From positions 1,798,001 through 1,862,000 of the forward strand of contig NZ_CP049857.1 of the NCBI RefSeq assembly GCF_011299555.1: 64,000 nucleotides of DNA. The letters are read 5' to 3'. Position 1 is the first letter of the stretch. Each line of letters begins with the position of its first letter. The position numbers were made by a program, and so were the translations under genes. The stretch comes from Dysgonomonas sp. HDW5A (GTDB taxonomy: Bacteria > Bacteroidota > Bacteroidia > Bacteroidales > Dysgonomonadaceae). Below, piece after piece: positions 1 through 9,025 of this stretch. Below the pieces are notes generated by a model. The model saw only the letters and a program-made list of their open reading frames with translations. It searched no databases and was not told the origin of the DNA.

Positions 1-1314
1 TGTGATGAAATATTTGGTGAAGAAAATTGTATTACAATATTTTCTCGTCTTATGAAGTCTGGAGGTGCAAAAGGACGATTTATAACTCCGAATATAGATT
101 ATATTCTTGCTTATACTAAGAATATCTTATTGACAAATGATTTTAGAAGTATCTTAAAAGAAGACCAAATTGAACGTTACTATAATAAAACAGAAATATC
201 AGGGGCAAGGGAAGGTCAGGTTTATGGAGAAGAGAGGCTCTATAAAGCAAGTCTTGACCCAAGAGCTAACCAGAGATATTGGATAAAATGCCCTGATGGC
301 ACATTTGTAATTCCTCCAGGAGTAAGTTTCCCTGAAAGATTAGAAGAAGGAGAAAAAATCGCTCCCACATCAGAGGATGGGGTTTGGAAGTGGATTTATG
401 ACCGTTATAAATCAGAATATAATTTAAATAATATTGTATTTAAAGAAACTTCTACATCGGCTCTTATTGATTCAACAGGTAAACAATCAAAATGGAATAT
501 TTATAATAAATTATGGTTAGAAGAACAAAAAGAAAAAGGAGTAGTTCCGTCTAATTTTATAAGTGAATTTGAGAATCGTCAAAGTGCGAAAGAACTGAAA
601 GACCTTGAAATACCTTTTGATTTTGCAAAGCCAAAAGATTTAATAAAATATTTACTCCAAATCTCTAAAACAGATGAAGATGCTTTAATCCTTGACTTCT
701 TTGCAGGTAGTGGTACAACAGCACAAGCCGTAATGGAACTGAACGAAGAAGACGGAGGTAATCGTCGCTTTATCTGTGTACAAATGCCCGAATTGTTGGA
801 AGAAAAAGACGAGGCTTACAAAGCAGGCTACCGCACTATTGCCGATATTTGCAAAGAACGTATCCATCGCAGTATTGCCAAAATAGAAAAAGAGCGCGAG
901 GGCAAATTGGAGTTCGAAACCAAACAAAAACTCGCCTTTGCCGCTTACAAGCTTAAACCAAGCAATTTCAAAATATGGCAATCCGATGCCGACAAAATGG
1001 ATTTGGCACAACAGCTTATCGACTTTACCCAGTCGGAACGTGCCGAAAGCCTACCGCAAAATATGCTGATAGAACTTTTGCTCAAAAACGAAAAAGAAGC
1101 CCTTACCATCAATTACTCTTTTGAGGATGGCTTCTACAAAACTCAGAAAACATGGTTCTGTTTCGAAGCATACGTCAAGCAACAAAAAGAGCTGCTCACA
1201 GCAGGCAAGCCACAAGAAGTGATATACCTCAATTCGTGCTTCACGTCGGACGAAGATTTGACTAACCTCAAACTCGAATTGCAGGAAAACAATATTAAAC
1301 TGACATTGGTATGA
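1..1314 (+). CDS. mod: Type III restriction-modification DNA methyltransferase (Mod), 3' part
   Basis: Modification subunit of a type III R-M system, which methylates adenine in an asymmetric site and also recognises DNA for the restriction subunit. The reading frame is open from base 1, so the 5' end, including the DPPY catalytic motif expected before the target-recognition region, lies outside the window. The first residues ([10 protein letters not shown]) match the block that follows DPPY in beta-class Mod proteins. The S-adenosylmethionine motif DFFAGSGTT lies near bases 692-720, after the recognition region, the normal order for this class. The stop overlaps the next start as ATGA. An ATG at base 52 is internal, not the true start. 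Confidence 0.9.
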
Positions 1315-2402
1315 TAAACAATATACAGATAGAAAACTATAAGTCTATCCGTGAGCTTAATCTCGATATGAAGCCAATCAACGTATTGATAGGCTCTAAC
1401 GGTGCGGGTAAAAGTAATTTTATCAGCTTCTTCAAGTTTTTGAAAGCAATCTACGACCGCAATCTGCAAATCCATGTTGCAGAAGAAGGTAGTAGCGAAG
1501 ATATATTGCATTTTGGTTCTAAAGTATCGGAATATGTGTGGGGATGGATAGAGTTTGATAGTGTTACTCCGACAACAAATGCTTATTCTTTTCGTTTAAA
1601 ACCAGATTCAGATAGTGATTTTTATTTTGACCGTGAAGCAATTGCATTTCATGACAAAGTAAGATATTCTGAACCTTATATTGATACAATCGGAGTAGGA
1701 GGGCATAACGAAAGTTTTCTTCCTAAAAGTACTAATTCTATTGCAGGACATGTAAGAAAATATATGAAGTCTTTTCGTGTATTTCATTTCCATGATACCA
1801 GTAAGACATCAAAATTGCGTAAACCAGCACAATTAAACGATAACGATTTCCTTCGCGAAGATGGTTCTAACCTACCCGCTTTTCTCTATTGGATGCAGGA
1901 AAAGCACCCCAAAGATTTCAAGAAAATAGAAATGGTGGTGCGTTCGGTTGCTCCCTACTTTGATAGCTTCAACCTTGCACCCGATAAACTAAACGAAGAC
2001 CAAATCCGTTTGCGTTGGAAAGAAAAAGGCTCGGATGCTTATTTCGAAGCCAAACACCTTTCGGATGGTACATTACGTTTTATAGCACTCACAACCTTAC
2101 TTCTTCAACCCGAAGCCCCCGAAGTAATCATTATAGACGAACCCGAATTGGGATTGCATCCGTTTGCGATCAACAAACTGGCAGGACTGATAAAGAAAGC
2201 TTCGGCACGCACACAGATTATTGTATCCACCCAATCGGTTAACCTTGTTGACAACTTCACGCCCGAAGATATTATCACAGTCGACCGTGAAGACAACCAA
2301 TCGGTCTTCAAACGTCAAGATTCAGATGAGTTAAAAGACTGGCTCGACGATTACAGTATCAGCGATTTGTGGAACAAAAATGTAATAGGAGGTAGACCAT
2401 GA
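1311..2402 (+). CDS. SMC/ABC-type AAA family ATPase (AAA_21) inside the R-M operon
   Basis: 363-residue ATPase of the RecF/SMC/OLD-like type. Visible motifs: Walker A GSNGAGKS at residues 28-35, ABC signature LSDGTLRF near 250, Walker B with [12 protein letters not shown] near 272-283, and a switch region VSTQS near 305. The start overlaps the mod stop (ATGA) and its stop overlaps the DUF4276 start in the same way, so the two are translated as a unit. ATPases of this kind with a small Toprim-like partner are known from anti-phage systems; the closest described parallel is PARIS (AriA ATPase with AriB Toprim). A role as a sensor guarding the R-M system is my inference. Confidence 0.85.
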
Positions 2403-3091
2403 AGCGATTGATTTTTATAGTAGAGGGGGATAGCGAAGACGAGTTCGTAAAGAGAATATTGAAACCTTATTTTGTTTCAAAAGGAGTTCCCGAATATTTA
2501 GTAAAATCTTATATAATAACTATGAGTGGAGGCGGGCATGGTTTCAATAATATTGAACATTTTAAAAATACCATAGAACCTGTTTTACATTATAAGGATG
2601 AGCCTGTTATTACAACTCTAATAGACCACTATAGATTAAATAGTGAGAAAAAGCTTACAGGATATAACCAATGTATAAAAGAAAGTGATATTGAAAAACG
2701 ACTTGCGAAAATGGAAGAAAAGCTGAACGATGCAGTTCAGTCGATTAAAGCCTATCGTTTCTTTATTCCTTATATTCAACGCCATGAATTTGAAACCTTA
2801 CTGTTTGCCGACCCCGAACAAGGGTTTGATTTAGAAAGTGAAGAACGTATAAAGCAAGATATTATTGATTTATGTAATTCTTTTGCGTCTATAGAAGATA
2901 TTAATTGCACACCTGAAGGTGCGCCTTCGGTTAGGTTGAAAGAAATATACTCGAAGTATAAAAAGAAATATGAAAAAGGGGCTGAGGCTGTAGATATTGC
3001 AGAACTTACAACAATAGAAAAGATACTTGACAAATGCCCGCGTTTTAAGAACTGGATTGATACACTAATTACAGAAGTTTTGAAAGCATGA
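2399..3091 (+). CDS. DUF4276 family protein, Toprim-like partner of the ATPase
   Basis: 230 residues matching the DUF4276 pattern. IVEGDSEDEF at residues 7-16 resembles the first acidic motif of Toprim nucleases; LIDHYRL lies near 72-79 and HEFETLLFAD near 129-138. These are the conserved blocks I recognise for the family; the Toprim relation is from general knowledge, not from an alignment. It overlaps the ATPase upstream and res downstream, each by ATGA. Coupling to the ATPase suggests an ATPase-controlled nuclease or toxin, with activity unproven. Bases about 2480-2740 look more AT-rich than the preceding ATPase gene. Confidence 0.75.
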   Translation: MKRLIFIVEGDSEDEFVKRILKPYFVSKGVPEYLVKSYIITMSGGGHGFNNIEHFKNTIEPVLHYKDEPVITTLIDHYRLNSEKKLTGYNQCIKESDIEKRLAKMEEKLNDAVQSIKAYRFFIPYIQRHEFETLLFADPEQGFDLESEERIKQDIIDLCNSFASIEDINCTPEGAPSVRLKEIYSKYKKKYEKGAEAVDIAELTTIEKILDKCPRFKNWIDTLITEVLKA

Positions 3092-5871
3092 AAATAAAAT
3101 TTGAAAGTAATCAAGACTATCAGCTACAAGCGGTTCAATCAGTAGTAAACCTTATTGAAGGGCAGGCACTTGCTGATTCCAAATTCGAAATATCTTTCTC
3201 CCGAAATGGTAAAAGTATAGCTTTTTCCGAAAAAGGAGTAAGCAACAATATGATGCTTTCGGAAGCTAACTTGCTAAAAAATGTACAAGCCGTACAGCAG
3301 GCAAACGGAATAGCATTGTCTGATAAGCTCGAAGTTTTAAAGGGCGATAAAGGAATTTGGTTTCCAAACTTCACCGTCGAAATGGAAACGGGAACAGGGA
3401 AAACATATACCTACCTGCGTACCATCTACGAACTGAACGAAGTCTACGGCTTCAAAAAATTTGTGATTGTAGTTCCCAGTATAGCAATCAGGGAGGGTGT
3501 TGTTAAAAACTTGCAAATTACGCACGACCATTTCCAAGACTTATATAAAAATCCTGCTGTTAACTTCGTGATGTATGATAGTAAGAATAAAAGCACCTTA
3601 CGCAATTTTGCCGTTTCGGATGCTATCCAGATTTTGGTTATCAATATTGACAGTTTTACAAAGGATAACAATATAATCAATACAATGAGCGAAAAAGGCA
3701 TAAAGCCAATTGAGTTCATTCAAGCAACTAATCCGATTGTCATTATCGACGAACCGCAAAACTTCGAAACAGAAGTAAGGCGGCAGGCAATAATAAATTT
3801 GAATCCTGCATTTACACTTCGTTATAGTGCCACACACAAGAATTTGTATAATCTTGTTTATTCGCTCAATCCTGTGCAAGCTTACGATTTAGGCTTAGTA
3901 AAGCAAATAGAAGTAGACGGAATAACCAGCGATAACAATTATAATTCGGCTTTTATTCAATATAAAGGTGTTACGAATGAGAAAGCCAATTATAAAGCAA
4001 AAATAGTTATTCACGTAAACGACAAAAACGGGGTAGTTCAGAAAGAAATAAAAGCAAAAGTAGGCGACGACTTATACGAACTATCTAATAAACGTGATAT
4101 TTATCAAGGCTACACCATTACGGGAATAAGCAGGCAGGATGAATATATCGAGTTTGACAACGGTATTGTAGTAACTGAAGGGCAAACACAAGGAGGCATG
4201 ACCGACGATGTGATGAAGTTTCAGATTGAACGTACTATCAGACATCATTTTGCCAAAGCCCGCAAACTGAAAAGCAAACGAATAAAAGTACTATCCTTGT
4301 TTTTTATCGACCGTGTAGCCAATTATCGGAACTATGATAACCCCGAAGATATGCGAGGTAAATTTGCTGTTTGGTTCGAAGAAGCTTTCAATCGAATACA
4401 GGCTTTACCCGTTAATAAAGATGTTATACCTTACGATAGAAAGCAAGTACACAATGGCTATTTTTCGTCTGATAAAACAGGTAAAGGGGCAGTTAAAAAA
4501 GAAATTTGGATTGACAGTAAAGAAGGAAATACTAAAAAAGACGATGAAACATTTAAGCTTATAATGCAAGAAAAAGAACGTCTTTTGAGTATGGATGAAC
4601 CATTGCAATTTATCTTTTCACATAGTGCTTTGCGTGAAGGTTGGGACAACCCGAATGTATTTCAGATATGTACCCTCAATGAAACAAAAAGCGAAATGAA
4701 GAAGCGACAGGAAATAGGGCGCGGATTGCGCCTTCCTGTAAATTCAGACGGGGTAAGGATTCAGGATAAGAATATTAATATCTTGACTGTAATAGCTAAC
4801 GAAACTTACGAAGATTTTTCGAAAGCTTTACAAACTGAAATACAAACTGAAACAAGTGTAGACTTTAGCGGTAGAATAAAGAACACCAGAGAAAAAGCAA
4901 GGGTTTCTTTATCAAAAGAATTGACTATCGAAAATTATCCGCTATTATTTGATATTTGGGAACGGATAAAATATCGGACAACCTATTCTGTCGAATTTGA
5001 GACAAAGAAGCTTATCTCTAAAACGATAGAGGAGCTTCAAGATTTCAACTTAGTACCTAAGGTTAAACAACCGATACTTGAAAGTCGAACAGCTCGTTTA
5101 GAGTTCATAAAGGACAAAGAGGATAATGTTATCGCTTTAGAAGGTACATTGCAAGATTCAGCAATGACACGAATAGAAGCCGCAGATTATCCTATACCTG
5201 ATATATATGCTTACATACAGAATAAATTAAATATTACAAGGAGCACTATATATCAGATATTAAAAGGCTCAAATAGATTGGATGAATTGAATATTAATCC
5301 ACAAATGTTCCTTGATAGTTTAATTGCAGCTATACAACGCAACCTTAACGCTTTATTGGTCGAAGGAGTGAAGTATAAGGCAATTAATGGAAGTGCTTAT
5401 GAAATGACGTTACTTAATAATGAAGAAGTTACGTACTTATCAAGTTTGTTTCCTAAAAAAAATAATCAAAAGTTATCTGATAAAACCATCTATAAGGCTA
5501 CACCTATAGACGAAACAGGGCAACCAACAGGCATAGACGATTTTATTTGTGTAAATACAGATAGTGATATTGAATGTGACTTTGCGGAAGGTTGTAATGC
5601 TGATGAAAATGTAAAATTCTTTTTCAAGCTACCAAAGAAATTTAAAATACCTACTCCTATTGGTAATTATAATCCCGATTGGGCTGTAGTCCTCGAAGAA
5701 GAAGGAAAATCTAAGGTGTATTTTGTTGCTGAAACGAAAGGAACTCGCGATTGGCAAGCATTACGTCCATCAGAAGCAATGAAAATAAAATGTGGAGAAA
5801 AGCACTTCGAGTTATTTAAGGACAAGAATATTGAATATAAATTAGCAATAACAGCTAAAGATTTGTACTGA
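3088..5871 (+). CDS. res: Type III restriction enzyme, Res helicase-nuclease subunit
   Basis: 927 residues, full length for the family. Helicase superfamily 2 motifs: ETGTGKT (motif I) near residue 100, IIDEPQ (motif II) near 221, and EIGRGLRLP (motif VI) near 540. The C-terminal endonuclease has the PD...ETK signature (PDWAVV near 863, then AETKG near 882) of the PD-(D/E)XK fold. It should assemble with Mod, translocate or slide on DNA, and cut when two unmodified sites face each other. The start overlaps the DUF4276 stop (ATGA). The system looks intact except that mod runs off the window. Confidence 0.93.
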   Translation: MKIKFESNQDYQLQAVQSVVNLIEGQALADSKFEISFSRNGKSIAFSEKGVSNNMMLSEANLLKNVQAVQQANGIALSDKLEVLKGDKGIWFPNFTVEMETGTGKTYTYLRTIYELNEVYGFKKFVIVVPSIAIREGVVKNLQITHDHFQDLYKNPAVNFVMYDSKNKSTLRNFAVSDAIQILVINIDSFTKDNNIINTMSEKGIKPIEFIQATNPIVIIDEPQNFETEVRRQAIINLNPAFTLRYSATHKNLYNLVYSLNPVQAYDLGLVKQIEVDGITSDNNYNSAFIQYKGVTNEKANYKAKIVIHVNDKNGVVQKEIKAKVGDDLYELSNKRDIYQGYTITGISRQDEYIEFDNGIVVTEGQTQGGMTDDVMKFQIERTIRHHFAKARKLKSKRIKVLSLFFIDRVANYRNYDNPEDMRGKFAVWFEEAFNRIQALPVNKDVIPYDRKQVHNGYFSSDKTGKGAVKKEIWIDSKEGNTKKDDETFKLIMQEKERLLSMDEPLQFIFSHSALREGWDNPNVFQICTLNETKSEMKKRQEIGRGLRLPVNSDGVRIQDKNINILTVIANETYEDFSKALQTEIQTETSVDFSGRIKNTREKARVSLSKELTIENYPLLFDIWERIKYRTTYSVEFETKKLISKTIEELQDFNLVPKVKQPILESRTARLEFIKDKEDNVIALEGTLQDSAMTRIEAADYPIPDIYAYIQNKLNITRSTIYQILKGSNRLDELNINPQMFLDSLIAAIQRNLNALLVEGVKYKAINGSAYEMTLLNNEEVTYLSSLFPKKNNQKLSDKTIYKATPIDETGQPTGIDDFICVNTDSDIECDFAEGCNADENVKFFFKLPKKFKIPTPIGNYNPDWAVVLEEEGKSKVYFVAETKGTRDWQALRPSEAMKIKCGEKHFELFKDKNIEYKLAITAKDLY

Positions 5872-5873
5872 TT

Positions 5874-6527
5874 ATGGCAAAAACAACCGACAATTACGGA
5901 ATAGTATATGTATTGAGCAACCCTGCAATGCCCGATTTAGTAAAAATCGGTATGACGACCCGTAACGAAATAGACAGCCGTATGCGAGAACTATTTAGTA
6001 CAGGTGTTCCTTTTCCCTTCGAATGTGAATATGCTTGTAAAGTATTAGCTTGCGATTGTGCTAAAATAGAAAAAGCTTTACATATTGCCTTCCATCCATA
6101 TAGAGTAAATGCAAGCCGTGAGTTTTTCAAGATTTTACCCGAACAAGCTATCGCAATACTGAAATTATTGGATAGAGGCAGCGATATAACCAGTGAAGTT
6201 ACTGCTGAAATAAACGACGATGTTACAGTAGGCGATAAAGTAGCAGCACAAAAATTCAAACAAAATCGACGCCCACCGCTTAATTTTCGTGAAATGGATA
6301 TCTTTGTAGGTTCAAGATTGCAATTTGCCAAAGACGAACAAAATATAGAAGTTGAAGTTTATACCGATAAAAAAGTATTATTCAATAATCAGGAACGTTC
6401 ATTAACATCGGTTACACAAGAATTACTCGGCTTGGATTATAACGTCCAGCCAACCCCTTATTGGACTTATAACGGAAAAAGTCTAAGTGATATCTATAAT
6501 GAAACCTATACCATAGAAGACGTGTAA
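5874..6527 (+). CDS. GIY-YIG nuclease-domain protein with RAMA-like C-terminus
   Basis: 217 residues starting two bases after the res stop, so part of the same operon. Residues about 8-95 form a T5orf172/MUG113-type GIY-YIG domain: YGIVYVLSN, VKIGMTT, then RMRELFSTG, an IEKALH glutamate and REFF. Residues about 140-215 (IFVGSRLQF ... ERSLTSVT ... YWTYNGKSLSDIY) resemble the RAMA/DUF4357 module found with restriction and modification enzymes. The N-terminal call is firm; the RAMA call is by eye. It could be an accessory nuclease or a modified-base reader acting with the R-M system. Confidence 0.75.
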   Translation: MAKTTDNYGIVYVLSNPAMPDLVKIGMTTRNEIDSRMRELFSTGVPFPFECEYACKVLACDCAKIEKALHIAFHPYRVNASREFFKILPEQAIAILKLLDRGSDITSEVTAEINDDVTVGDKVAAQKFKQNRRPPLNFREMDIFVGSRLQFAKDEQNIEVEVYTDKKVLFNNQERSLTSVTQELLGLDYNVQPTPYWTYNGKSLSDIYNETYTIEDV

Positions 6528-6556: not shown

Positions 6557-6588
6557 AGGGAGCAAAATGTTGTTCCCTTTATTTTTTT
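6557..6588 (+). terminator. Intrinsic terminator of the R-M operon
   Basis: A nine-pair stem (6557-6565 with 6570-6578, one G-T pair) with loop AATG is followed by a T-rich tract. It sits 30 bases after the last gene of the operon. Confidence 0.8.
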
Positions 6589-6619
6589 ACGAAAACTAAT
6601 TCCTGTTTTACGAAAACTA
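6585..6619. repeat. 14-bp direct repeat, 21-bp period
   Basis: TTTTACGAAAACTA occurs at 6585-6598 and again at 6606-6619, identical, spaced 21 bases centre to centre (two helical turns). It lies just before the small-RNA promoter. It could be a regulator operator or an integrase arm site; the sequence does not decide. Confidence 0.6.
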
Positions 6620-6632
6620 TTTGACAAAACCC

Positions 6633-6663
6633 ATTGAAAGCAGTATCGTAGTCTTTATTTTTG
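6633..6663 (+). promoter_or_regulatory. Bacteroidetes-type promoter for the candidate small RNA
   Basis: ATTG at 6633-6636 and TATTTTTG at 6656-6663 are separated by 19 bases, the usual spacing of the -33 and -7 boxes. No protein gene follows on this strand; the structured segment at 6670-6800 does. Confidence 0.6.
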
Positions 6664-6669
6664 CAACAT

Positions 6670-6800
6670 AAAACGTTGTGAAACGCAAAGAAGATGCTGA
6701 TAGCGCAGCACCTTCCTTAATTAAGGCAACACGGTCTTCGTAATCGCTCCGTGTTGCTTGCGGTAGCAGAGGAGTAAGTTTTTGCTCCTCTGTTTACTTT
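6670..6800 (+). ncRNA. Candidate small structured RNA in the island
   Basis: About 130 bases with no credible reading frame but dense inverted repeats: TGCTG/CAGCA (6695-6699, 6706-6710), a perfect 12-base palindrome CCTTAATTAAGG (6715-6726), a nine-pair stem GCAACACGG/CCGTGTTGC (6726-6734, 6749-6757), and an eleven-pair stem (6767-6777, 6782-6792) followed by TTTACTTTA that could terminate the transcript. A well-spaced promoter lies directly upstream. On the other strand a lone TATCTTTG box (rc of 6804-6811) could also drive antisense transcription. I do not recognise the family. Confidence 0.45.
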
Positions 6801-7048
6801 ATACAAAGATAAAAATAAATGGAACTTTATAATTATCAATCAAAATAATATGCTCATTTCGTAGACAAAATATGCACGAATCGAGCATATTTATTTCACT
6901 TATTTTTCTGTATATAAGTATTATATAGAAAAACATCTACATATCTTATATAAAGACATATAAAAATCAGAACCAAAAAATTTTTATGGAACGAGATTGT
7001 GTTTTGTGACTTCCGTTTAGCGGGTGGGGGTTACCCTTTTCTTCCCAT
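6801..7048. other. Non-coding spacer between small RNA and phage-like gene
   Basis: Very AT-rich up to about 7000, then a short G-rich run (GGGTGGGGG near 7021-7030). Apart from the reverse-strand -7-like box at 6804-6811 I see no gene or repeat. Confidence 0.4.
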
Positions 7049-7513
7049 CTAAGTTAATAGTGCTCCCTTCGCTTCTTTTGCAGCTTTGTACAATGAACAC
7101 ACATTACATCTTAATGGTAAATAATATCTGATTGTATCGTCTTGTGTTTGCTCCTTTTCTTTCTTCCATCCCTCAAGATCGCTAAGTTTTAGCAATATTT
7201 CAGCTTTCAGTTTTGTGTCGTTTGTAAGGCTTACCAATTTGTTTAATTCGCGGATAGTGTCCGCTTTGCTTCGGTTTTCAGTATCTTCAATAAGGGCTGC
7301 TTTACGTCCTCTTTCAGCCTCCAAAAAGGCTTGTACAGGCTCACTGTTTATCCAACGTGAAGCCATTGCTATTAACGACTGGTTATTAGCCGAAACAGGT
7401 TTTCTACGGCTGCAAATATAGGCTGTAAGTTGGTCGCCTGTCTGTAAATAGGCAATCATACAAAAACGCTCCCTGTCTGATAGTTTATTTATTAGTTGTT
7501 CTTTGGTTAGCAT
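7049..7513 (-). CDS. Terminase-small-subunit-like protein next to integrase
   Basis: 154 residues. The N-terminal part (ERFCMIAYLQTGDQLTAYI) resembles the helix-turn-helix region of phage terminase small subunits, and the middle (RSKADTIRELNKL then KLKAEILLKLSDLEGWKKE) is the helical stretch often seen in Bacteroidetes members. Two CxxC-like cysteines lie near the C-terminus (CNVC). It is 33 bases downstream of the integrase stop on the same strand, so probably cotranscribed. No other packaging genes are present, so it may be a domesticated regulator rather than a working terminase. Confidence 0.5.
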   Translation of the reverse strand: MLTKEQLINKLSDRERFCMIAYLQTGDQLTAYICSRRKPVSANNQSLIAMASRWINSEPVQAFLEAERGRKAALIEDTENRSKADTIRELNKLVSLTNDTKLKAEILLKLSDLEGWKKEKEQTQDDTIRYYLPLRCNVCSLYKAAKEAKGALLT

Positions 7514-7546: not shown

Positions 7547-8788
7547 TTATGAAAACAAAGATAATTGTGCTTGTTCTTTTGGCTTCTCAGTCTTCTTGTT
7601 ACTCGTTTTTTTCTCTATTTTAGCTTTTAGGATAAAATCAATCACTTTATTATTTAGTTCGTCTATTCGGGTAAACGACTTTTTGATATACCCTATAGTT
7701 ACTTTATGAGCCGAACCATGATTTAAACAGAAAGCTATTTGTTCATCACTCGCCCCGCAATCATTATGGGCGATTGTAGCCCATGAGTGCCGAAAGGTAT
7801 ATGTATCTACAGGTGGCAACCCTAAGTCTTTGCATATTGTTTTCAGACCAATGTTTATATGCTTATTGAAAGAACGGTCATTGCTATAGCCAAACTCTAA
7901 AAGCCTTTTCTCACCTCTATATTTTTTGAATAAATGTTTGATGTCAGGATGTATACCAATTTCAATATATGCTTTATCGTCGCGGGTATCTTTTGTTTTA
8001 CTGCGGTTATAACAAATCTTTCCCTTTTTTAGATTCTTTTCTTCCAAATTGAACAGATCAACCGTATTCATACCCACTAAATAAATAATCAATTTGGCTA
8101 CATCTTGCGCTTTCTCTGTCTGTTTTGTCTTAGCGTCATATTGTAATATAGACTTTATACTGGCTGCGTCTATTGCTCGTTTTTGCGGTAAATCGTGTTT
8201 TGGTATTTTTACCCCTTTAAAAGGCTGTGAGTGAATATAGATATTATTGCGATCATAATCGTTAAACTCTAAACAACCCGCATCAAAAATAGCTTTAATA
8301 GCCTTTGGATATGTTTCTTTTGCTCGGGCAGTTTTCTTTAATGATTTTATCCACTCAGTCAAGCCATACGAAGTTATTCCTTGAAAAGTAATATCCTTAC
8401 CGAAGAAAGTTTCAAATGATTTTTTGGCACATTTATAATTTGATGCGCTTTTTTCCCTTCCTTCATTTACCATCTTATCAATAAATTTCTGGCAGTAGGG
8501 AATAAATGGAATTTTTGAGTATTCTGTTTTTAAGAAATCGACCACTTCTTTGACAGACCAAGAATTTACATCCTCGGCATTATTCAGTTTATCCAAGTAA
8601 CCTTTTATCTTTATCGCGCATTGACCTAAAACAGTCTGATCGGTTATTACTCCTTCTTTTACTTTAGAACTACGAACATACCAATCTGTTTTTATGTACG
8701 CATTCTTTCGATTATGTGTCACACGGATGTATACAAGATACAGTCCGTCAGTCCGTTTTGTCCTAATTTCAGCCTTAAATGTAGCCAT
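7547..8788 (-). CDS. Tyrosine recombinase / integrase
   Basis: 413-residue site-specific recombinase of the Bacteroidetes mobile-element type. The N-terminal half is an arm- and core-binding region (SAM-like, about 95-190). The catalytic part shows YTFRHSWATI with the box II arginine at 333, LNHGS with histidine 357, and the nucleophile tyrosine in GYIKK at 367. The box II histidine is replaced by threonine or tyrosine, usual in this lineage. Its 5' end faces tRNA-Leu about 155 bases away. It most likely integrated the island carrying the R-M operon. Confidence 0.92.
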   Translation of the reverse strand: MATFKAEIRTKRTDGLYLVYIRVTHNRKNAYIKTDWYVRSSKVKEGVITDQTVLGQCAIKIKGYLDKLNNAEDVNSWSVKEVVDFLKTEYSKIPFIPYCQKFIDKMVNEGREKSASNYKCAKKSFETFFGKDITFQGITSYGLTEWIKSLKKTARAKETYPKAIKAIFDAGCLEFNDYDRNNIYIHSQPFKGVKIPKHDLPQKRAIDAASIKSILQYDAKTKQTEKAQDVAKLIIYLVGMNTVDLFNLEEKNLKKGKICYNRSKTKDTRDDKAYIEIGIHPDIKHLFKKYRGEKRLLEFGYSNDRSFNKHINIGLKTICKDLGLPPVDTYTFRHSWATIAHNDCGASDEQIAFCLNHGSAHKVTIGYIKKSFTRIDELNNKVIDFILKAKIEKKTSNKKTEKPKEQAQLSLFS

Positions 8789-8896: not shown

Positions 8897-8931
8897 CAAA
8901 AAAAGGATTACGTTTTATATCGTAATCCTTT
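8897..8931 (-). terminator. Terminator of the tRNA-Gly/tRNA-Leu transcript
   Basis: A perfect eleven-pair stem (8902-8912 with 8921-8931) is followed, on the minus strand, by eight T. It lies a few bases past the 3' end of tRNA-Leu. Confidence 0.8.
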
Positions 8932-8942
8932 AATAATCAATG

Positions 8943-9025
8943 TACTCGGAGCGGGACTTGAACCCGCACAACCTAATGGTCACAAGATTTTAAGTCTTGC
9001 GTGTCTACCATTCCACCATCCGAGC
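8943..9025 (-). tRNA. tRNA-Leu (anticodon TAA)
   Basis: Reverse strand folds as a tRNA with acceptor stem GCTCGGA paired to TCCGAGT, anticodon loop CTTAAAA in a five-pair stem, a long variable arm typical of Leu, and T-arm GCGGG-TTCAAGT-CCCGC. CCA is not encoded. The 3' end points to the integrase, so this is the probable integration target. Confidence 0.95.

What the first reader, a model, noticed from the sequence alone, without database searches (positions are those of the whole stretch)
6633..6800. Likely small structured RNA between defence operon and integrase
A promoter with exact 19-base spacing (ATTG, TATTTTTG) is followed by no gene but by about 130 bases with four inverted repeats, one a perfect 12-base palindrome, ending in an eleven-pair stem with a T-rich tail. 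The density of pairing exceeds anything else in nearby non-coding DNA. It could be an island regulator, an antitoxin-like RNA or an msr-like part of something larger.
Basis: partly seen in the sequence, partly recalled or inferred. Interest (0 to 1): 0.6.

Follow-up and report, generated by a model that had tools for sequence, protein, structure and literature searches.

The report
Conserved phage and satellite small RNA
A short stretch of apparently empty DNA encodes a previously uncatalogued, folded RNA that bacterial viruses of Dysgonomonas and a virus-like defence island both carry behind the same kind of switch, which suggests a shared regulatory signal between them.

Summary
Window 6667-6795 (+) predicts a ~129-nt, four-hairpin RNA (fold z -6.05) with its own Bacteroidetes-type promoter and an intrinsic terminator; no Rfam match. 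Three successive covariance models found three other distinct members in the same bacterial family: prophages of Dysgonomonas alginatilytica and Dysgonomonas sp. 25, and an island remnant. A degenerate fifth copy is likely. Over four sequences 21 of 35 pairs change on both sides, 13 of 24 outside the terminator; no reading frame is conserved. TTACGAAAA lies 46-47 nt before the TAnnTTTG box in four of five loci. The window copy sits in a 12.5-kb tRNA-Leu island with integrase, TerS-like gene, Fic and a type III restriction/HEC-01 cargo, no capsid gene recognised: a likely phage satellite. Best explanation: a regulated phage/satellite small RNA acting in trans, probably through the exposed SL3 loop (CGUAAUC). 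Gene and promoter are supported by comparison; transcription, target and mechanism are inferred; no target was found. The msr idea fails (no reverse transcriptase); the 12-base palindrome is incidental. New RNA family, known kind.

The parts
6667..6795 (+). predicted small RNA gene, about 129 nt, four hairpins; start of transcription inferred at about 6667-6670
   Evidence: fold z -6.05; homologues by covariance models; covariation
6587..6597 (+). first copy of conserved upstream site TTACGAAAACT
6608..6618 (+). second copy of TTACGAAAACT, 21 bp further; its ACG starts 46 nt before the -7 box, the spacing seen at three other loci (46, 46, 47)
6633..6636 (+). -33-like element ATTG; not conserved in the relatives
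   Evidence: alignment
6656..6663 (+). -7 box TATTTTTG (TAnnTTTG), present in all five loci
   Evidence: consensus quoted in PMC7366714 (passages)
6674..6685 (+). stem-loop 1, CGUU-GUGA-AACG
6690..6715 (+). stem-loop 2 (GAAG.UGCUG / CAGCA.CUUC); variable in sequence, stem kept
6724..6759 (+). stem-loop 3 (AGGCAACACGG / CCGUGUUGCUU) with a 14-nt loop
6739..6745 (+). CGUAAUC, conserved core of the stem-loop 3 loop (CCGUAAUC in the other three members)
   Evidence: alignment A11
6765..6794 (+). stem-loop 4, intrinsic terminator
6830..6962 (.). start of the island backbone shared with the cargo-free island of G009; contains GAGCATATT/AATATGC sites that in the prophage lie just upstream of a RepL gene
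   Evidence: (75% over 77 bp, E 0.003)
7049..7513 (-). 154-aa gene of the island backbone, terminase-small-subunit-like by family membership
   Evidence: alignment A10; 1 of its 8 members hits PHROG 51 terminase small subunit, E 5.5e-8; the window's own protein hits nothing
7547..8788 (-). tyrosine integrase of the island
8942..8999 (.). attR: 58-bp end of tRNA-Leu, repeated perfectly 12.5 kb away at genome 1794500-1794557 (attL, outside the window)
1..6527 (+). cargo: type III modification gene (runs in from the left), HEC-01A/B (AAA_21 and DUF4276), type III restriction gene, T5orf172/PDC-S57 gene

Best explanation
It is the gene of a regulatory small RNA that belongs to a family of temperate Dysgonomonas phages and to a satellite-like island related to them. 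Supported by comparison: a conserved four-hairpin RNA with an intrinsic terminator, read from its own promoter, with a conserved upstream site at a fixed 46-47 nt distance from the -7 box. Inferred: a phage or satellite regulator acts at that site, so the RNA is made in a particular phase of the element's life. Inferred: the RNA works in trans, because its neighbours differ from element to element, most likely by base-pairing of the exposed stem-loop 3 loop (CGUAAUC) with one or more phage, satellite or host messages.
For: Homologue from a one-sequence model, 40.7 bits, E 6.6e-9; a second, not in training, 56.9 bits, E 7.9e-12; a third, not in training, 82.4 bits, E 2.6e-15. Covariation: 21 of 35 pairs with changes on both sides, 0 of 500 shuffles, slid controls 0-2 pairs. 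Each of the four members folds with z -4.5 to -6.5. Site-to-box spacing 46, 46, 46, 47 nt. No shared reading frame. Different flanking genes in the elements. A transcription start plus an intrinsic terminator marked eight of the nine Northern-validated sRNA candidates of B. thetaiotaomicron (PMC7366714, passages).
Against: No transcript evidence was available. A search for the complement of the phage-type loop before ATG in four genomes gave no usable target: 108 hits (overlapping ones and the RNA loci themselves included) against 58 for the reversed pattern; the excess may come from Asp-Tyr-Gly codons inside genes, which I did not test. Pairing with a second DNA segment shared by phage and satellite was not consistently beyond chance. 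The -33 element is not conserved. The G031 copy lacks the upstream site. The cargo-free sister island of G009 has no such RNA, so the backbone can exist without it.
Confidence: 0.55

Rival explanations
1. The RNA is made but works by binding a protein (a decoy, or a scaffold that inhibits a host defence or a phage regulator), not by base-pairing.
For: The stems are strong, the GUGA loop of stem-loop 1 is kept in three of four members, and the stem-loop 3 loop is near invariant, as a protein site would be. No pairing target was found.
Against: A 7-8 nt invariant loop is also a usual form of a pairing seed; no protein partner gene next to the RNA is shared by all the copies.
Confidence: 0.27
2. 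It acts in cis: a terminator/insulator or leader at the edge of the cargo hotspot, without a job as a free RNA.
For: In the window, the two prophages and the remnant it lies beside variable genes and ends in a terminator facing a convergent gene.
Against: An insulator does not need stem-loops 1-3 to covary (13 of 24 pairs) nor a conserved upstream site at fixed spacing; the next gene downstream is convergent at these loci.
Confidence: 0.1
3. The structure works as single-stranded DNA, for example a replication or packaging signal of the phage and satellite.
For: A RepL-type gene and its putative binding sites lie near in the phage; both strands fold.
Against: TAnnTTTG box with spaced upstream site and intrinsic terminator all point one way; G-U pairs occur in the conserved stems.
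Confidence: 0.05
4. It is a short protein-coding gene.
For: A 21-codon frame from a GTG exists in the window copy.
Against: The corresponding frame stops after 8 codons in the D. alginatilytica copy, and no frame is shared by the four; the changes follow base pairs.
Confidence: 0.01
5. It belongs to the restriction cargo (for example a regulator of the type III system) rather than to the phage/satellite.
For: In the window it lies directly after the cargo, and the cargo-free sister island lacks it.
Against: No type III restriction operon was recognised next to the two prophage copies; the remnant has a helicase gene with only weak matches to restriction models.
Confidence: 0.04

Closest known systems
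Intergenic sRNAs of Bacteroides with a TSS and intrinsic terminator (GibS and others, PMC7366714)
   Same: size class (recalled), TAnnTTTG promoter, intrinsic terminator, no obvious Hfq/ProQ in Bacteroides (passages)
   Different: carried by phages and a satellite-like island, strongly structured, upstream site at fixed distance; no sequence relation tested beyond Rfam
Phage- and prophage-encoded base-pairing sRNAs (lambda OOP, P22 sar, named from recall; E. coli prophage Pas sRNAs, PMC13192938, seen only as a listing)
   Same: encoded by temperate phages as separate short transcripts
   Different: host phylum differs and no target is known here; sequence relation not tested beyond Rfam; shared here by phage and satellite-like island
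Phage-inducible chromosomal islands (PICIs)
   Same: the carrying island: att repeats, integrase, TerS-like gene, no capsid gene recognised, 12.5 kb, defence cargo
   Different: no primase or rep gene recognised; induction and packaging untested; no small RNA is mentioned in PMC6092414 (term search)
Retron msr-msd
   Same: compact structured RNA near defence genes
   Different: no reverse transcriptase recognised in the island

Membership tests
canonical intergenic sRNA (Bacteroides type) | own promoter with TAnnTTTG box | tested here: met
   box in 5 of 5 loci; promoter activity itself untested
canonical intergenic sRNA (Bacteroides type) | intrinsic terminator at the 3' end | tested here: met
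   hairpin plus T-rich tail, hairpin kept in all four members
canonical intergenic sRNA (Bacteroides type) | detected transcript | not testable with these tools
   no RNA-seq on hand
canonical intergenic sRNA (Bacteroides type) | regulates a target by base-pairing | tested here: inconclusive
   loop-complement scan and duplex test gave no target
a described RNA family (Rfam 15) | match at the gathering score | tested here: not met
   no family at gathering score at this locus; at E up to 5 only matches below the gathering scores
retron msr-msd | adjacent reverse transcriptase | tested here: not met
   none among the island genes scanned
type III antitoxin RNA | tandem repeats plus a ToxN-like endoribonuclease | tested here: not met
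   no tandem repeats; no such protein among the scanned genes
PICI (the carrying island) | att repeats and integrase | tested here: met
   58-bp perfect repeat at tRNA-Leu; integrase
[quoted passage not shown]
   none recognised by Pfam among the island genes; two genes, the 134-aa and the 154-aa one, have no Pfam match
PICI (the carrying island) | TerS homologue or phage cos/pac site (sometimes present) | tested here: inconclusive
   TerS-like by family membership only, 1 of 8 members hits PHROG 51; a 205-234 nt segment is shared with the prophage, role unknown
PICI (the carrying island) | primase/rep replication module | tested here: not met
   none recognised among the island genes; only RepL-type sites remain
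PICI (the carrying island) | induction and packaging by a helper phage | not testable with these tools
   no relative of the phage TerL found in this genome, an empty search without a positive control

The most novel reading that the evidence does not exclude
The same RNA, behind the same kind of switch, is made by temperate phages and by a satellite that carries a terminase small subunit of their kind and a defence cargo. It would be a shared signal by which the satellite senses, mimics or blocks its helper phage: an RNA-based phage-satellite dialogue in Bacteroidetes.
Probability: 0.2. Interest if true: 0.8.

Novelty: new member of a known kind. Interest (0 to 1): 0.55.

Why it matters
It is a well-defined new structured RNA family, with compensatory evolution and a fixed-distance promoter site, in phages of a phylum whose phage regulation is, to my knowledge, little studied. 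Because phage and satellite-like island share it, it gives a concrete handle on how such islands may talk to their phages, and it can be tested with a single deletion.

Tried and rejected
Plain DNA similarity failed. In 100 other family genomes there were five short hits: four match only the -7 box and the bases behind it, one is a coding stretch (of L006 I saw only the alignment). Plasmid and phage records gave none.

Weak covariance hits outside the four members were set aside: L026-L032, L047, L048, L058-L062 and L068-L070, 22-33 bits under the model that found them. L026, and by its sequence L068, are 3' ends of HU-like genes (name recalled) with a terminator; the others are partial matches. 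I read the sequence of L026, L058-L062 and L068, only the alignment of L027, L028, L030-L032, L047, L048, L069 and L070, and neither for L029. Two of three stretches from the viral pattern scan (L039, L041) are coding chance matches; the third is the same D. alginatilytica prophage.

A loop-loop pseudoknot between stem-loops 2 and 3, seen by eye in two members, is absent in the other two. Pairing of the RNA with the second shared segment: of six tests (three elements, both strands) 9 to 239 of 300 shuffles were as good; the lowest was one strand of one phage only. Loop-complement target scan: not informative. Short peptide: rejected.

Limits: the order-wide R3 search scored 8 of roughly 40-150 first-look candidates per genome, and R2 missed two true members in the family search, so the narrow distribution is a lower bound. 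The copy in the second D. alginatilytica prophage (L052) scored only 10.1 bits (E 0.045) in a targeted, unfiltered search, was not reported by the default searches, and is left out of all pair counts. Seven literature searches by topic listed nothing on this RNA; they show capped listings, and I saw only listings, plus passages of PMC6092414 and PMC7366714.

Full report
The observation. A TAnnTTTG box (6656-6663) is preceded at 19 nt by TTG, and about 130 bases of non-coding DNA follow with strong hairpins. RNA folding gives -52 kcal/mol against -31.5 for shuffles, z = -6.05. The spaced promoter pattern occurs 8 times in the window, and nine of 983 scanned windows fold as well or better relative to shuffles, two of them overlapping this locus. 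So the feature is strong but could not be judged on folding alone. Rfam has no match.

The island. The locus lies in a 12.5-kb island bounded by a perfect 58-bp repeat of the tRNA-Leu end (window 8942-8999 and genome 1794500-1794557). The backbone is an integrase, a 154-aa gene, a stretch with GAGCATATT-like sites and, at the far end, a Fic gene. The relative G009 (equal in contig length to the Dysgonomonas sp. UBA5412 record) has the same backbone without cargo; its two halves meet within about 15 bp where this genome holds 8.7 kb of cargo plus the RNA (the right-hand junction rests on a 75% match over 77 bp, E 0.003). The cargo is a type III restriction system with an embedded HEC-01 pair and a PDC-S57 gene. 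The 154-aa family looks like a terminase small subunit: one of eight aligned members hits PHROG 51 (E 5.5e-8), while the window's own protein hits no family. With no structural gene recognised, the island looks like a phage satellite; that is inference. No primase or rep gene was recognised, which counts against calling it a PICI.

The RNA family. A model from the window sequence alone (R1) found an end-to-end match (40.7 bits) in the D. alginatilytica prophage, whose TerL, portal and head genes are recognised. A two-sequence model (R2) then found the prophage of Dysgonomonas sp. 25 at 56.9 bits, E 7.9e-12; its TerL is 89% identical to the first. A three-sequence model (R3) found G031 at 82.4 bits, E 2.6e-15, near a truncated relative of the window's integrase (48% identity over 140 residues, E 6e-42). 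In that search 8 of 101 family genomes pass E 0.1; 4, including this one, stand out (E below 1e-14), in 2 of 15 genera, and the next best match is E 0.01. Among 393 order genomes 4 pass E 0.005 and only this one is convincing. Pairwise identity of the four is 42-68%.

Structure. On the four-sequence alignment, 97% of cells pair, 21 of 35 pairs show changes on both sides (13 of 24 outside the terminator), no shuffle of 500 reaches this, and slid controls give 0-2. The alignment was fitted to the model, so it leans to the structure; but two members were found by models not trained on them, and each member folds into four hairpins on its own (the window's fold also shows a small fifth pairing inside the stem-loop 3 loop). 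In the G031 copy the model misplaces part of stem-loop 2, which costs pairs rather than adding them. No frame is conserved. The stem-loop 3 loop keeps CGUAAUC in all four.

The promoter. Five loci, counting the degenerate second prophage of D. alginatilytica (L052), have a TAnnTTTG box upstream. In four of them TTACGAAAA lies 46, 46, 46 and 47 nt before the box; G031 has none. In two phages the site is a palindrome, AGTTTTCG-N6-CGAAAACT; in the window it is a pair of half sites 21 bp apart. The 9-mer occurs 13 times in 600,998 strand-bases of the loci examined, some counted twice. The box ends 4 nt before the modelled start in the window and 32-37 nt before it in three other loci; in L052 it ends about 3 nt before the match start (one search printed 10 because I gave it a start 7 nt later). 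So the transcripts of those three may carry a longer leader.

What it does. Neighbouring genes differ: the 154-aa gene and the restriction cargo here, a 284-aa gene in one phage, a DUF4280 gene in another, a 251-aa gene in the remnant. That argues for action in trans. I commit to a trans-acting regulatory RNA with the stem-loop 3 loop as contact; the target is unknown. Two attempts to find one failed.

Novelty. Phage-encoded sRNAs are a known kind; this is a new RNA family within it. Literature searches listed nothing on it in the held library. What is unusual is its sharing between temperate phages and a satellite-like island behind one promoter design.

Noticed in passing
genome 1795944-1796148, left of the window (L008 17944-18148); G009:C26:5127-5360; G030:C4:153301-153523; G030:C20:65800-65985; G012:C32:242833-243062: A 205-234 nt non-coding segment (begins GACACCCTCTTAG, then AGTTCTGGGGAGATAATTAGAACG) is 73-88% identical between the satellite-like islands and sites in two prophage-bearing Dysgonomonas genomes. 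It does not fold better than chance, so it may be a DNA site such as a packaging signal; in the D. alginatilytica prophage region it follows a 1728-aa ORF.
   Followed up: partly
window 6849-6889; L019 about 5054-5105; L020 9320-9360: GAGCATATT/AATATGCAC sites are shared by the islands and lie just upstream of a RepL gene in the prophage; the islands keep the sites, but no RepL gene was recognised in the window's island.
   Followed up: partly
window 1-6527: Type III restriction system with a HEC-01 pair (AAA_21 and DUF4276) between mod and res and a PDC-S57 gene behind, plus a SoFic-like gene at the other island end.
   Followed up: partly
window 8901-8931: A hairpin GGATTACG...CGTAATCC at the island end could serve as terminator for the tRNA genes into which the island inserted; G009 has the same hairpin with a compensated pair. 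It shares CGTAATC with the RNA loop, probably by chance.
   Followed up: no
L052 18220-18395: Second D. alginatilytica prophage has a shorter, degenerate candidate copy of the RNA with the same promoter site at 47 nt.
   Followed up: partly
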